A stretch of DNA of 64,000 nucleotides, from contig NZ_CP029487.1 of assembly GCF_002441855.2 (NCBI RefSeq), positions 3,708,349-3,772,348 of the forward strand. The letters are read 5' to 3'. Position 1 is the stretch's first letter. Each line of letters opens with the position of its first letter. Below the pieces are notes generated by a model. The model was not told the origin of the DNA. It saw only the letters and a program-made list of their open reading frames with translations, and made no database searches. Source of the stretch: Eubacterium maltosivorans. GTDB lineage: Bacteria; Bacillota; Clostridia; Eubacteriales; Eubacteriaceae. Position numbers and translations under genes: made by a program. Below, piece after piece: positions 3,123 through 62,584 of the stretch.

Positions 3123-3157
3123 AAAAGAACCCGTATCGCGGCGATACGGGTTCTTTT
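3123..3157. repeat. Dispersed palindrome, type 1, copy 1
   Basis: Arms CCCGTATCG and CGATACGGG (3130-3150) around the centre CGG, extended by AAAGAA/TTCTTT on the outside. A T-rich run follows, so this copy could also terminate the regulator transcript. Confidence 0.9.
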
Positions 3158-3189
3158 GTTTTTTGTTTATTAAAAATTAAATAATATAC

Positions 3190-3219
3190 TTTACAAAATG
3201 ATATTATACGTTGTATAAT
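3190..3219 (+). promoter_or_regulatory. Promoter of the PadR/DUF1700/DUF4097 operon
   Basis: TTTACA at 3190-3195, an 18-nt spacer and a perfect TATAAT at 3214-3219. The -10 element lies inside the PadR-type operator. Confidence 0.7.
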
Positions 3220-3225
3220 ATCATT
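3197..3225. promoter_or_regulatory. PadR-type operator
   Basis: Perfect inverted repeat: AATGATATTATA, 5-nt spacer CGTTG, TATAATATCATT. It covers the promoter spacer and the whole -10 box, so a bound dimer would block the polymerase. PadR regulators usually repress their own operon, and the next gene is a PadR protein. Confidence 0.8.
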
Positions 3226-3252
3226 AACGATATAAAGAAAGGAGATGCGAGG

Positions 3253-3576
3253 ATGATTTTTCAATTAGGCTCCGCACTTCTGGACGCCTGTGTGCTGGCC
3301 GTTCTCTCAGAGGAGGACGCTTACGGCTACAGTCTGACACAGCGGGTCAAAAGTGTGCTGGATATTTCAGAATCCACCCTTTACCCGGTGCTCAGGCGTC
3401 TGCAAAAGGAAAAGTACCTGGCCACCTACGATAAGCCCTTTCAGGGACGGAATCGCCGTTATTACGCCATTACGGAAAGCGGAAGGGCCAAGCTGGCAGA
3501 ATACCGTGAAGAGTGGGATATTTACAAGGAAAAAATAGATTCGCTTCTGATAGGAGGTGGCGTGAATGAATCGTGA
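3253..3576 (+). CDS. PadR-family transcriptional repressor
   Basis: A 107-residue protein, the size of short class II PadR regulators. The winged helix is clear (LDACVLAVLSEEDAYGYSLT, then SESTLYPVLRRLQKEKYL, then RNRRYYAITESGRAKL). An in-frame ATG further up at 3211 lies inside the operator and lacks a ribosome site. The start at 3253 follows AAAGGAGATGCGAGG and is preferred. It overlaps the DUF1700 gene by 11 nt. PadR-DUF1700-DUF4097 is a recurring Firmicute operon in which PadR senses envelope or drug stress. The perfect operator over the promoter suggests autorepression. Confidence 0.9.
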   Translation: MIFQLGSALLDACVLAVLSEEDAYGYSLTQRVKSVLDISESTLYPVLRRLQKEKYLATYDKPFQGRNRRYYAITESGRAKLAEYREEWDIYKEKIDSLLIGGGVNES

Positions 3577-4138
3577 AGAGTATATGGCAGCGCTGGAAAA
3601 GCACTTGAGAAAGCTGCCAAGGGATGAAAGGGAAAATGCCCTGGTGTATTACAATGAATATTTTGATGACGCCGGGCCGGAAAATGAGGACAGGGTTATC
3701 GGGGAGCTGGGCTCGCCGGCCAAGCTGGCCGCGCAGCTGCGCAGCGAGTACGCCCTGAAGGGAAATGAGCAAGAGAAAAAGAAAATGCCTGTGGTGTTAA
3801 TTGTGATCTTATCCATCTTCGCGGCGCCCATCGCCCTGCCACTGGTCATTGTGGCCGCGGCTTTGGTATTTGTGCTGATGGTGGTGGTTTTCGCCTTCCT
3901 GTTCGCCTTTGTGGTGACAGCGGTGAGCCTAATCCTGGGCGGTTTCCTCTGGATGGTGATCGGGCTGATTTTGATCTTTCAGAGCCCGGCGGCTACGCTG
4001 TTTTACGTGGGCGGCGGGGCGCTCGCGTTGGGGCTGGGGATATTGCTGGGAGTGGGCATGTACCACCTGATCCCCTGGGTGATCAGCGGTTTTAAGCGGA
4101 TGGCCGAAGCGATTTTGGAATGGAGGAAAAATGCATGA
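3566..4138 (+). CDS. DUF1700 (HAAS-like) membrane protein
   Basis: A 190-residue protein. The N-terminal ~65 residues are the conserved soluble domain (MNREEYMAALEKHLRKLP, then YYNEYFDDAGPENEDRVIGELGSP). Three or four hydrophobic helices follow between about residues 75 and 175. The family is regularly encoded between a PadR regulator and a DUF4097 protein, as here; its biochemical role is not established. The start overlaps the end of the PadR gene, and the stop overlaps the preferred start of the next gene (ATGA), so the three are co-translated. Confidence 0.88.
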   Translation: MNREEYMAALEKHLRKLPRDERENALVYYNEYFDDAGPENEDRVIGELGSPAKLAAQLRSEYALKGNEQEKKKMPVVLIVILSIFAAPIALPLVIVAAALVFVLMVVVFAFLFAFVVTAVSLILGGFLWMVIGLILIFQSPAATLFYVGGGALALGLGILLGVGMYHLIPWVISGFKRMAEAILEWRKNA

Positions 4139-60267: not shown

Positions 60268-62268
60268 ATGAATGAAGAATTAAAACAGGCTGAAGCCAAA
60301 ATCAGCCAGCTTAAAAAACAAATTGAGGAAAACAACGTCCGTTATTATGATAAGGACGCGCCCGTCATTCCAGACTACGAGTACGACCGCATGATGCGGG
60401 AGCTCATCAGTCTGGAGACTGCCTATCCGCAGTTTTTGACACCTGATTCGCCGAGCCAGCGTGTGGGCGGCGCGCCGTCAGAGGCCTTTGAGAAAGTGAA
60501 CTACACCACGCCTAAGCTCAGCCTCAGCAACGCTTTTAACGCCGGGGACCTGAGGGACTTTGATACCCGTATCCGCAAGGTCTACCCCGATGTGGAGTAC
60601 TGTGTCGAGCATAAATTCGATGGCCTGACCGTTGTGTTAGACTACGAAAACGGACTGCTGGCCCGCGGCTCTACCCGCGGCGACGGCGTGACCGGCGAAA
60701 ATGTCACCCAGAATCTGAAGACGGTCAAGACCATTCCCCTGCGCCTCACAGAGCCGGTGACCCTGGAGGTCCGGGGGGAGGTGCTGATCTATAAGGAGGA
60801 CTTTGAGCAGCTGAACGCTGCGCGGGAGGAACAGGGCGAGCCCCTGTTCGCCAATCCCAGAAACGCCGCCGCAGGCTCTATCCGCCAGCTTGACCCTAAA
60901 CTGGCGGCCGAAAGGCCTCTGGACATCTTTGTATTTAACCTGGAATACTGCGAGAACCGGACCTTCGAGACCCATAAGGAAAGCTTTGATTTCCTCACAC
61001 ACTGCGGTTTTAAAACCAGTGAGGTGAAGCTTTACAGCAGCATGGAGGACATTATCACCTACATTGAGGAGATGGAACATGGCGGAAGAGAGGCCCTGCC
61101 CTATGAGATTGACGGCATGGTCATCAAGGTCAATAATCTGGCAGAGCGGGAGCGGCTGGGGGACACCTCCAAATCACCCCGCTGGGCCATTGCTTACAAG
61201 TTCTCGCCCGAGCAGACCGTGACCACTGTGCGGGACATCACGGTGCAGGTGGGCCGTACCGGCGCTCTGACGCCTGTGGCGGAGCTTGAGCCTGTCCTGC
61301 TGGCAGGCTCCATGATCTCCCGGGCGACCCTCCATAACGAGGACTACATCATCGACAAGGATATCCGGATTGGCGACAAGGTTGTAATCCAGAAGGCCGG
61401 GGATGTTATCCCCGAAGTCGATCATTCCATTCCAGAGGAGCGCACCGGCGCCGAGGTCATTTTTACCATGCCCACCCATTGCCCGGTCTGCGGCTCCAAA
61501 ACCTACCGGGTGCCCGGTGAGGCAGTAACTAAGTGCCTGAACATGGACTGTCCGGCCCAGGTATTTCGCAAGATTGTTCATTTCGCCTCCAGAGATGCCA
61601 TGAATATCGACGGCATGGGTCCGGCGGTGGTAAGACAGTTGCTGGATAACGAATTGATCCACACCATTGTGGATATCTACCATGTTTCTAACCGTCGGGA
61701 AGACCTGACCGGGCTCGAAAAAATGGGCGAAAAATCTGTGGATAACCTCATAAACGCCATAGAGGATTCCAAAAGCAGGCCGCTCTCCAAGGTGGTTTTT
61801 GCCCTGGGAATTCCGCTGGTAGGAGCCAATGGGGCCAAAATACTGGCCTCCCACTTTGGCAGCATGGACGCCCTTATGGAGGCTTCCGAAGAGGAGCTGA
61901 CAGAAATTTATGACATCGGCGGCAAAATGGCTGTGGAAATTGTGGATTTTTTCAAGACCGATGCAAACCGACGTATTGTGGACGGCCTGCGGGAGGCTGG
62001 TGTCAACATGACGGAAAATACCGCCAGGGCCACTGCAGAACTCGCAGGGAAAACCTTTGTCCTGACCGGCACACTGCCCACCATGGGACGCCGTGAGGCC
62101 AAGGAGATCCTGGAGAGCCACGGCGCCAAGGTGTCCGGCTCGGTCAGCAAAAAAACTGATTATGTGCTGGCCGGAGAAAACCCCGGCTCCAAGGCCGAGA
62201 AAGCCATGAGCCTGGACGTGCCCGTTATTGACGAGGAAGCCTTTAAAAAAATGGTCGGCCTGGAATAA
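60268..62268 (+). CDS. ligA: NAD-dependent DNA ligase
   Basis: A 666-residue protein of full LigA length: N-terminal Ia domain, adenylation site [13 protein letters not shown] (Lys of KxDG), OB fold, a four-Cys zinc finger (CPVCGSKTY, then CLNMDCPAQ), helix-hairpin-helix repeats and a C-terminal BRCT domain ([20 protein letters not shown]). It seals nicks with NAD as the adenylate donor. Second gene of pcrA-ligA; gatC and gatA follow after a 413-nt gap. Confidence 0.97.
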
Positions 62269-62278
62269 AAATAAAACC

Positions 62279-62303
62279 AAGGGGTATCGTGGCGATACCC
62301 TTT
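62279..62303. repeat. Dispersed palindrome, type 2, copy 2
   Basis: GGGTATCG, centre TGG, CGATACCC, with AAG/CTT outside (one wobble). It is the counterpart of the copy at 27874 and lies directly after ligA. Confidence 0.88.
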
Positions 62304-62445
62304 CAGGGTGTAGATAAACTTTATCATGAAGATTTGAAGCGTTAAAGAGAGGCGGTTCTTGCCAATGTCCGGCTATTCTTATTATGCGGCACGATTCCTG
62401 GCCGTTATCCGCAGCGCCTGGACCTTTTTGGTTATCTGGATAAAA

Positions 62446-62474
62446 GGCGCAGTCTTGGGCTGCGCCACTTTTTG
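62446..62474 (+). terminator. Terminator-like hairpin
   Basis: GGCGCAG pairs with CTGCGCC, 7-nt loop, then ACTTTTT. Confidence 0.75.
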
Positions 62475-62553
62475 ACAGCCTGATGCGGCAGAATACCGCA
62501 TTTTCAATCCGGTCATGAACCTTCCACTTTCAACGTTCCACCGTCCACCTTTG

Positions 62554-62584
62554 TTCAGCCCGTATCGCCGCGATACGGGCTGAA
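62554..62584. repeat. Dispersed palindrome, type 1, copy 11
   Basis: Perfect 14-nt arms TTCAGCCCGTATCG and complement around the centre CCG. It lies upstream of the gatC promoter. Confidence 0.92.

What the first reader, a model, noticed from the sequence alone, without database searches (positions are those of the whole stretch)
3123..62584. A dispersed intergenic palindrome family with conserved arms and a free 3-nt centre
Eleven type 1 copies (CCCGTATCG-N3-CGATACGGG), two type 2 copies (GGGTATCG-N3-CGATACCC) and three decayed or broken ones occur in 64 kb, essentially all between genes and mostly just after a stop codon. Arms keep the GTATCG...CGATAC core while the centre varies (CGG, CCA, GGA, TGA, TAG, CTG, TGG, TCA, CCG). 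Some copies have T-runs and may terminate transcription; others (14187, 20731, 51672) have none, and copies at 27874 and 51672 lie between genes that should be co-transcribed. Flank pairing often extends beyond the core and differs per copy. This fits a REP-like or MITE-like family, or a binding site for a nucleoid or chromosome-organising protein. I do not know a described element with this core.
Basis: partly seen in the sequence, partly recalled or inferred. Interest (0 to 1): 0.72.

Follow-up and report, generated by a model that had tools for sequence, protein, structure and literature searches.

The report
Palindromic DNA sites confined to two chromosome zones
A short mirror-image DNA signal sits just behind genes, but only in two small parts of this bacterium's chromosome, and those spots are where related species have often gained or lost genes, so it looks like an undescribed site that a protein recognises and where genes are swapped.

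Summary
The palindromes are real: 16 matches with up to 2 mismatches, shuffles average 1.1. But all 29 exact GTATCG-N3-CGATAC sites of the 4.34-Mb chromosome lie in two zones of 130 and 115 kb; all 35 of a complete relative lie in the homologous zones. Outside the genus only scattered single matches appear.

The constrained unit is CCCGTATCG-YNR-CGATACGGG (some half-sites AGG/GGG). In three species core arms are 98-99% identical, against 76-77% at fourfold sites, while the middle base differs more than fourfold sites do; the centre stays Y-N-R, which RNA pairing cannot explain.

Sites follow core genes (polA, ligA, pyrG, typA); 16 of 24 stop-facing sides could terminate transcription. Gaps holding a site are indel hotspots: 23 of 30, against 9 of 32 with ordinary terminators.

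No RAYT or tyrosine recombinase lies in the window genome's zones. Best reading: a zone-restricted, dimer-recognised site where gene cassettes are exchanged. A macrodomain-type binding site (matS-like) and a passive hairpin family are close rivals. The cognate protein is unknown.

The parts
3130..3150 (.). palindrome, type 1, centre CGG, exact core; T-runs on both sides
5195..5215 (.). palindrome, type 1, centre CCA, 25 nt after the DUF4097 gene
11322..11342 (.). palindrome, type 1, 1 mismatch (CGGTAC), centre GGA, 11 nt after the Na/Ala symporter gene
12206..12226 (.). palindrome, hybrid half-sites (CCC left, CCC right), 2 mismatches
   Evidence: hybrid also in G002 and G003
14190..14210 (.). 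palindrome, type 1, centre TGA, no T-run, 80 nt before a TetR gene
20736..20756 (.). palindrome, type 1, centre TAG, no T-run
25274..25294 (.). palindrome, type 1, centre CTG, between convergent genes (my gene calls), T-runs both sides
27878..27898 (.). palindrome, type 2, GTACCG on one side, centre CCA; exact core in G001, G002 and G003
36545..36565 (.). palindrome, type 1, centre TGG, 14 nt after a P-type ATPase gene; three tRNA genes follow
42079..42099 (.). palindrome, type 1, centre TCA, at the left edge of the mobile segment A
42097..43892 (+). segment A (GGDEF gene 42237-43835): absent from the zone in G001, placed elsewhere in G002 and G003 next to another palindrome
45996..46016 (.). 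exact core inside the ABC transporter coding sequence (centre AAA); probably coincidental
48957..48977 (.). palindrome, type 1, centre CCG, 38 nt upstream of the polA start as I call it (49013)
51686..51706 (.). palindrome, type 1, centre CCG, between the polA stop and the coaE start as I call it; deleted in G002, present with 1 mismatch in G003 and as GTACCG-CGGTAC in G001
52544..52564 (.). palindrome, hybrid half-sites (CCC left, CTTTTG right), centre CGG, after a tRNA and its terminator; hybrid in all four genomes (G001 with GTACCG-CGGTAC)
62281..62301 (.). palindrome, type 2, centre TGG, 15 nt after ligA
62559..62579 (.). palindrome, type 1, centre CCG, upstream of gatC; in place of the DNA between this and 62281, G001-G003 have a methyltransferase-like gene (named by eye)

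Best explanation
The family is a sequence-specific, dyad-symmetric DNA site with 9-bp arms CCC(or AGG/GGG)GTATCG and a Y-N-R centre. I infer that a homodimeric protein not yet identified reads it.

Shown: it is confined to two chromosome zones, sits at the ends of genes, is kept mostly at orthologous places with conserved arms in three species, and changes its centre faster than fourfold sites. The gaps that hold it gain, lose and shuffle gene segments far more than neighbouring gaps with ordinary terminators.

Inferred: the site works as an exchange point. A recombinase acting in trans joins or cuts DNA at or next to the palindrome. Units of 'gene(s) plus 3-prime palindrome' are then inserted and excised, and this multiplies sites only next to existing sites. 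That would explain why they cluster, as attC sites do in a superintegron. Many copies double as intrinsic terminators for the gene in front.
For: Zone restriction: 29 of 29 exact sites in the window's genome and 35 of 35 in G002. Position: 32 of 34 sites with up to one mismatch intergenic, 22 of 34 within 50 nt of a stop.

Core arms 98-99% identical among G000, G002 and G003 against 76-77% at fourfold sites for G000 versus G003 and G002. Centre YNR in 88 of 92 exact cores from four genomes. Middle base only 48% identical for G000-G002 (10 of 21 orthologues; p=0.0035 against fourfold sites). C-G swaps, as an inverted centre would give, make up 5 of 11 changes against 14% at fourfold sites.

Gap test: indels in 23 of 30 palindrome gaps, 9 of 32 terminator gaps and 5 of 33 other gaps.

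Alleles with one palindrome versus palindrome-gene(s)-palindrome: G2Z2 75798/78170 and 94083/94969, G3C11 5773/7270 and 31448/32194. Segment A sits at different palindromes in different species and is absent from the G001 zone.
Against: No tyrosine recombinase lies in either zone of the window's genome. G002 has two inside its zones and G001 some in or beside them, but none can be shared by all four; the 287-aa one of G002's zone 2 has no close relative in the other three. None of ten proteins scanned reaches the integron-integrase cut-off (102.5 bits at best against 265), and none the related NF040815 cut-off (198 against 220).

Several insertions lie beside the palindrome rather than inside it, and some have no second copy (right end of segment A, V3, G3c). 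38 of 88 pairwise indel events have no palindrome near.

Complete flips of the centre are few: 1 of 21, 1 of 21 and 1 of 22. Flips can also arise passively in hairpins. In G001 the core is only 88-89% identical to the others, little above flanks (84-87%).

Most zone-2 sites stay at the same place across species and stand between essential genes, where free recombination would be harmful.
Confidence: 0.36

Rival explanations
1. Domain-marking sites for a nucleoid or chromosome-organising protein, working like matS/MatP or RacA-bound sites: a dimer binds about 30 palindromes in two zones and gives that DNA a special structure or tether. Gene gain and loss nearby is a side effect.
For: Number of copies, zone restriction, dyad Y-N-R centre, conserved arms and mostly intergenic place fit. 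Mixed half-sites persist across four species, which fits dimer binding rather than hairpin pairing.
Against: Zones are mid-replichore and not at a fixed distance from ori: 0.51-0.64 Mb left and 0.90-1.02 Mb right in G000, but 0.61-0.75 and 1.84-1.98 Mb on one side in G002. Does not predict centre turnover or the indel excess. No candidate protein found.
Confidence: 0.3
2. A passive hairpin family (REP-like or terminator-like) that spread locally long ago. Long perfect palindromes are fragile and slip during replication, which flips centres, corrects arms symmetrically and invites indels. Terminator use keeps them.
For: 16 of 24 stop-facing sides carry at least 6 T in 8 nt. In G001, 7 of 22 sites of one contig carry the same departure in both arms. 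Of the changed pairs in the outer CAA/TTG triplet, 7 of 14 (G000-G002) and 3 of 18 (G000-G003) changed on both sides to a new pair. Centre flips are typical of hairpin loops (recalled).
Confidence: 0.25
3. Ordinary intrinsic terminators that resemble each other because of local duplication.
For: Many have A/T tracts on both sides and lie 10-30 nt after stops.
Against: The upstream genes scanned are unrelated. The two zones share only one DNA similarity over 300 bp (0.9 kb). Several copies lack T-runs or pair only over 6 bp.
Confidence: 0.06

Closest known systems
matS sites bound by MatP (Ter macrodomain of E. coli)
   Same: About 20-30 copies of a short palindrome with a 3-nt degenerate centre, confined to part of the chromosome (23 matS of 13 bp in 800 kb: abstract start of PMC3330122; the RNY centre is recalled).
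   Different: Different sequence, YNR instead of RNY, two mid-arm zones instead of the terminus, sites at gene ends, spacing near 5 kb, indel hotspots. No MatP relative was searched for.
attC/VCR sites of chromosomal superintegrons
   Same: Palindromic sites just behind genes, confined to a stretch of about 100 kb, with gene cassettes gained and lost (recalled; search listing only).
   Different: Short near-perfect palindrome instead of a 60-130 bp imperfect one (recalled); no integron integrase in the G000 zones; core housekeeping genes inside; some segments hold several genes.
RacA-bound ram sites of Bacillus subtilis
   Same: Inverted-repeat sites spread over one part of a Firmicute chromosome (recalled; only a search listing was seen).
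   Different: Not around ori; different sequence; RacA presence not tested.
REP/BIME elements with RAYT transposases
   Same: Intergenic hairpins after stop codons (recalled).
   Different: No Y1/RAYT gene in the G000 zones, few copies, zone-restricted.
Neisseria uptake-sequence pairs acting as terminators
   Same: Conserved inverted pair doubling as terminator (recalled).
   Different: About 30 copies in two zones instead of thousands genome-wide (the latter recalled).

Membership tests
Integron | Integron integrase gene next to the array | tested here: not met
   None of the 19 PF00589 hits of G000 lies in the two zones. Eight of those 19, plus one protein each from G001 and G002, were scanned: integrase_gron at most 102.5 bits against a cut-off of 265; NF040815 at most 198 against 220.
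Integron | Cassettes gained and lost at the 3-prime palindromic site | tested here: inconclusive
   Indel excess at palindromes and palindrome-gene(s)-palindrome alleles, but several insertions are imprecise.
matS/MatP-type macrodomain site | Sites confined to a limited chromosome region | tested here: met
   29 of 29 and 35 of 35 exact sites in two zones; two zones rather than one.
matS/MatP-type macrodomain site | Region placed at the terminus | tested here: not met
   ori near 2.77 Mb and ter near 0.6 Mb in G000; zones mid-arm.
matS/MatP-type macrodomain site | Bound by a dedicated dimeric protein | not testable with these tools
   Inferred from the dyad rule only.
REP element | RAYT (Y1) transposase gene associated with the repeats | tested here: not met
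   Two PF01797 hits in G000, at 3.41 and 4.26 Mb, none in the zones; G002 has one, with a stop inside, in its zone 2.
MITE | Terminal inverted repeats around an interior, with target duplication | tested here: not met
   No interior beyond 3 nt. The one empty allele examined (polA-coaE in G002) is a deletion by parsimony, since G001 has a site there. Target duplications were not searched for systematically.
Intrinsic terminator | Hairpin followed by a T-run on the side of the gene | tested here: inconclusive
   16 of 24 stop-facing sides have at least 6 T in 8 nt.

The most novel reading that the evidence does not exclude
An integron-like exchange system without a resident integrase, built into the core chromosome of a Firmicute: a 21-27 bp palindrome with a YNR crossover centre, read by a trans-acting recombinase, seeds two zones in which 'gene plus palindrome' units are inserted, shuffled and lost beside polA, ligA, pyrG and typA.
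Probability: 0.28. Interest if true: 0.88.

Novelty: new variant of a known kind. Interest (0 to 1): 0.7.

Why it matters
Few bacterial motifs are known to mark only part of a chromosome, and those that I recall (matS, ram, attC arrays) each revealed a system. Here the motif, its zones and its evolution are defined in four related genomes, so the binder can be fished out biochemically. Either answer is useful: a new chromosome-domain system in a Firmicute, or a new way to exchange genes inside the core genome. Bacteria of the Eubacterium limosum group are also of interest as gas-fermenting hosts (recalled), where safe insertion points are wanted.

Tried and rejected
RAYT link: rejected for the G000 zones. 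Viral carriage: 0 exact CCC...GGG matches in viral contigs. Other organisms: the genome-contig scan found 41 stretches, 19 from Eubacterium callanderi FD and 22 from other records with one match each; 12 of those 22 were looked at by eye and read as scattered hairpins. The ORFs around Pseudoramibacter's single copy gave only weak matches to the sequences I had fetched. ori- or ter-linked function: disfavoured because zone positions differ between G000 and G002. A single ancestral zone split later: ligA and pyrG lie 215 kb apart in one complete Acetobacterium-like genome (G013) but far apart in another (G006) (genus names of G handles are my guess); undecided. The lone 287-aa recombinase of G002 as the cognate enzyme: rejected, no close relative in the other three. 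RNA wobble rule at asymmetric G001 sites: judged by eye, mixed, so not used as evidence. A second motif (CGTAACG-N3-CGTTACG) as a sister family: within the fetched G000 stretches only two places, both beside one site. Literature: searches listed no paper on such a family; only listings and abstract starts were seen.

Results against my reading: 38 of 88 pairwise indel events, which are not independent, have no palindrome within 60 bp. Gap tests with G002 and G003 as base are weaker against ordinary terminators (p=0.046 and 0.049). An earlier version with a hand-merged event list gave 23 of 30 against 7 of 32. Against intergenic flanks the whole-centre excess is modest (14 of 21 changed, 7.5 expected, p=0.004). 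Complete centre flips are few (one per species pair among G000, G002 and G003). In G001 the arms are hardly more conserved than flanks. The fifth genome of the genus (G004, 80% complete) has no site.

Rows dropped: in G001 contig 2 I set aside one of 23 listed sites (82201) as a chance match; a 66-kb part of zone 1 was left out of the gap tests; the orthologue table (24 rows, zone 2 only) was put together by hand.
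Full report
THE OBSERVATION. The window holds 16 matches to GTATCG-N3-CGATAC with up to 2 mismatches, 13 of them exact; shuffles give 1.1 on average. Its 'eleven type 1' are ten exact copies plus one with CGGTAC. Two of the 'decayed' copies are hybrids of a type 1 and a type 2 half-site, and the one at 45999 lies inside an ABC transporter gene.

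DISTRIBUTION. The window is G000:C1:3708349-3772348 of a 4,337,501-bp single-contig chromosome. All 29 exact sites lie in zone 1 (2,130,084-2,260,338; 9 sites) or zone 2 (3,674,511-3,789,446; 20 sites), together 5.7% of the genome. The reversed pattern occurs 0 times. Of 12 places with one mismatch, 3 lie in zone 2, 2 within 18 kb of it and 7 elsewhere; with up to two mismatches there are 124 places against 81 for the reversed control, so looser matches are mostly chance. In 61 related genomes the counts are 29, 35, 35 and 4 in four genomes of this genus, 0 in the fifth (80% complete), 1 and 2 in two genomes outside it, and 0 in the rest. In the single-contig relative G002 all 35 lie in two segments homologous to zones 1 and 2. 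With the looser core CCGTAYCRYNRYGRTACGG, 4 of 40 family genomes match, all of this genus. A scan of one genome per species found many copies only in Eubacterium callanderi FD (19 of 41 stretches); 22 other records each had one (records near the window's own genome may be left out there). The species of G000 was not named to me.

PLACE ON THE CHROMOSOME. Two exact parS sites at 2.77 Mb and the skew switch put ori there and ter near 0.6 Mb. Zone 1 is 0.51-0.64 Mb left of ori and zone 2 is 0.90-1.02 Mb right of it. In G002 both zones lie on one side, 0.61-0.75 and 1.84-1.98 Mb from its parS. So the zones follow their genes, not the ori-ter axis. Many genes there are core: sites stand right behind polA, ligA, typA, pyrG and a tsaC/Sua5 gene, and near addA-like, coaE and gatC genes (gene calls are from my own simple caller).

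ANATOMY. 34 sites with up to one mismatch were placed in the two zones. 32 are intergenic and 22 lie within 50 nt of a stop. Of 24 stop-facing sides, 16 have at least 6 T in 8 nt. By eye, three copies follow a complete ordinary terminator. Half-sites come in two kinds, CCC-GTATCG and AGG/GGG-GTATCG, in all combinations. The hybrid at window 52547 is kept in G002 and G003, and as GTACCG-CGGTAC in G001. The centre is Y-N-R in 28 of 29 G000 sites and in 88 of 92 exact cores of the fetched zones of four genomes; three of the four exceptions are the one coding copy. The first and third centre bases cannot pair in a hairpin, since the loop would be 1 nt. So the rule is a DNA-level dyad rule: every such centre holds one pyrimidine-purine step. 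This is inference from the sequence.

EVOLUTION. For 21-22 orthologous zone-2 sites per species pair, the 12 core bases are 98% identical (G000-G002, G000-G003) and 99% (G002-G003). The three inner bases are 98-100% identical. The outer CAA/TTG triplet is 83-92% identical, close to flanks (86-94%). The middle base is only 48%, 43% and 68% identical. Fourfold-degenerate sites are 77% and 76% identical for the first two pairs, and the middle base differs more than that (p=0.0035 and 0.0011; the third pair's fourfold sites were not computed). C-G swaps, as an inverted centre would give, are 5 of 11, 5 of 12 and 4 of 7 of the middle-base changes, against 14% at fourfold sites for the first two pairs. 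Exact reverse complements of the whole centre are only one per pair. The inner arm bases stay nearly fixed at each locus, so long-tract gene conversion is unlikely. In G001, the most distant species, the core is 88-89% identical to the others, little above flanks (84-87%) though above fourfold sites (70%). There, 7 of 22 sites of one contig carry the same departure on both sides (one listed chance match dropped). Hairpin-templated correction, altered specificity or relaxed selection could explain that.

REARRANGEMENT. Comparing the zones pairwise, indel breakpoints fall at palindromes again and again: 50 of 88 pairwise events have one within 60 bp (events are shared between pairs and not independent). 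At the level of intergenic gaps in G000, indels touch 23 of 30 gaps with a palindrome, 9 of 32 with an ordinary terminator and 5 of 33 with neither (palindrome against terminator p=1.6e-4). With G002 or G003 as the base the excess holds (16 of 27 against 3 of 14; 18 of 26 against 5 of 15) but p is only 0.046 and 0.049. Variable segments are often single genes: GGDEF, secreted protein, Tim44-like, RelE-like, XRE, CPBP, methyltransferase (named by eye except GGDEF); others hold several genes. Four alleles are palindrome-gene(s)-palindrome in one species and a single palindrome in G000 (G2Z2 75798/78170 and 94083/94969; G3C11 5773/7270 and 31448/32194). Segment A (window 42097-43892) is absent from the G001 zone and lies at different palindromes in G000 and in G002/G003; its neighbouring half-site and centre TCA are shared by G000 and G002. 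Other insertions lie beside, not in, the palindrome, and some lack a second copy.

MECHANISM. Shown: zone restriction, arm conservation in three species, YNR, centre turnover, indel excess. Inferred: a dimeric reader, and exchange at the site. No recombinase is linked to the sites in all four genomes: none of 19 tyrosine recombinase hits of G000 lies in its zones; G002 has two inside its zones and G001 some in or beside them. The 287-aa one of G002's zone 2 has no close relative in the other three, and none of ten proteins scanned, eight of them from G000, reaches an integron-integrase cut-off. A recombinase elsewhere in the genome, such as the Xer-like one near ter, was not excluded. I therefore put the exchange reading at 0.36, a matS-like binding role at 0.30, and a passive hairpin family at 0.25.

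COMPARISON. It works most like matS in copy number and dyad design and most like attC in place and in segment turnover, but fails a defining test of each (terminus position; integrase beside the array). The matS figures come from the abstract start of PMC3330122. attC, ram and REP facts are recalled, with listings only. Searches of the open-licence library listed no paper that describes this family.

Noticed in passing
G000 fetched stretches, incl. window about 48663 and 48799: A separate hairpin family CAAATnnGC...GCnnATTTG, most copies inside a larger repeat with gttgatagtggaaagtggaaag-like ends; 29 hits, 17 of them in the 200 kb around zone 1, 6 around zone 2 and 6 in 440 kb elsewhere.
   Followed up: partly
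G002 zone 2, joined coordinates 46243-46980 (G002:C1 about 2546243-2546994): About 246-bp units in tandem, each ending in a palindrome; G000 and G001 have one copy there and G003 two around an XRE gene.
   Followed up: partly
G002:C1:2569973-2570836: Lone 287-aa tyrosine recombinase in a variable segment that ends at a palindrome, with an MCP-like gene and a broken IS200-like gene; no close relative in the three sister genomes.
   Followed up: yes
Zone 1, G000 about 2147200-2213750: A 66-kb block without a site in G000 and with one in G002 (1355198); long parts are 94-96% identical to G002, above most of the flanks. G002 and G001 have tyrosine recombinases in or near it. Possibly transferred DNA.
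   Followed up: no
Zone 2, next to palindromes at joined coordinates 34511 and 52811: A second palindrome-like stretch around AAACGTTACGTCC beside these two sites in all four genomes, seen by eye (the first also).
   Followed up: no
window 45996-46016: Exact core within the ABC transporter coding sequence, kept in G000, G002 and G003 and with one mismatch in G001.
   Followed up: partly
Zone 2: DNA-repair genes addA-like, polA and ligA all lie in the zone.
   Followed up: no
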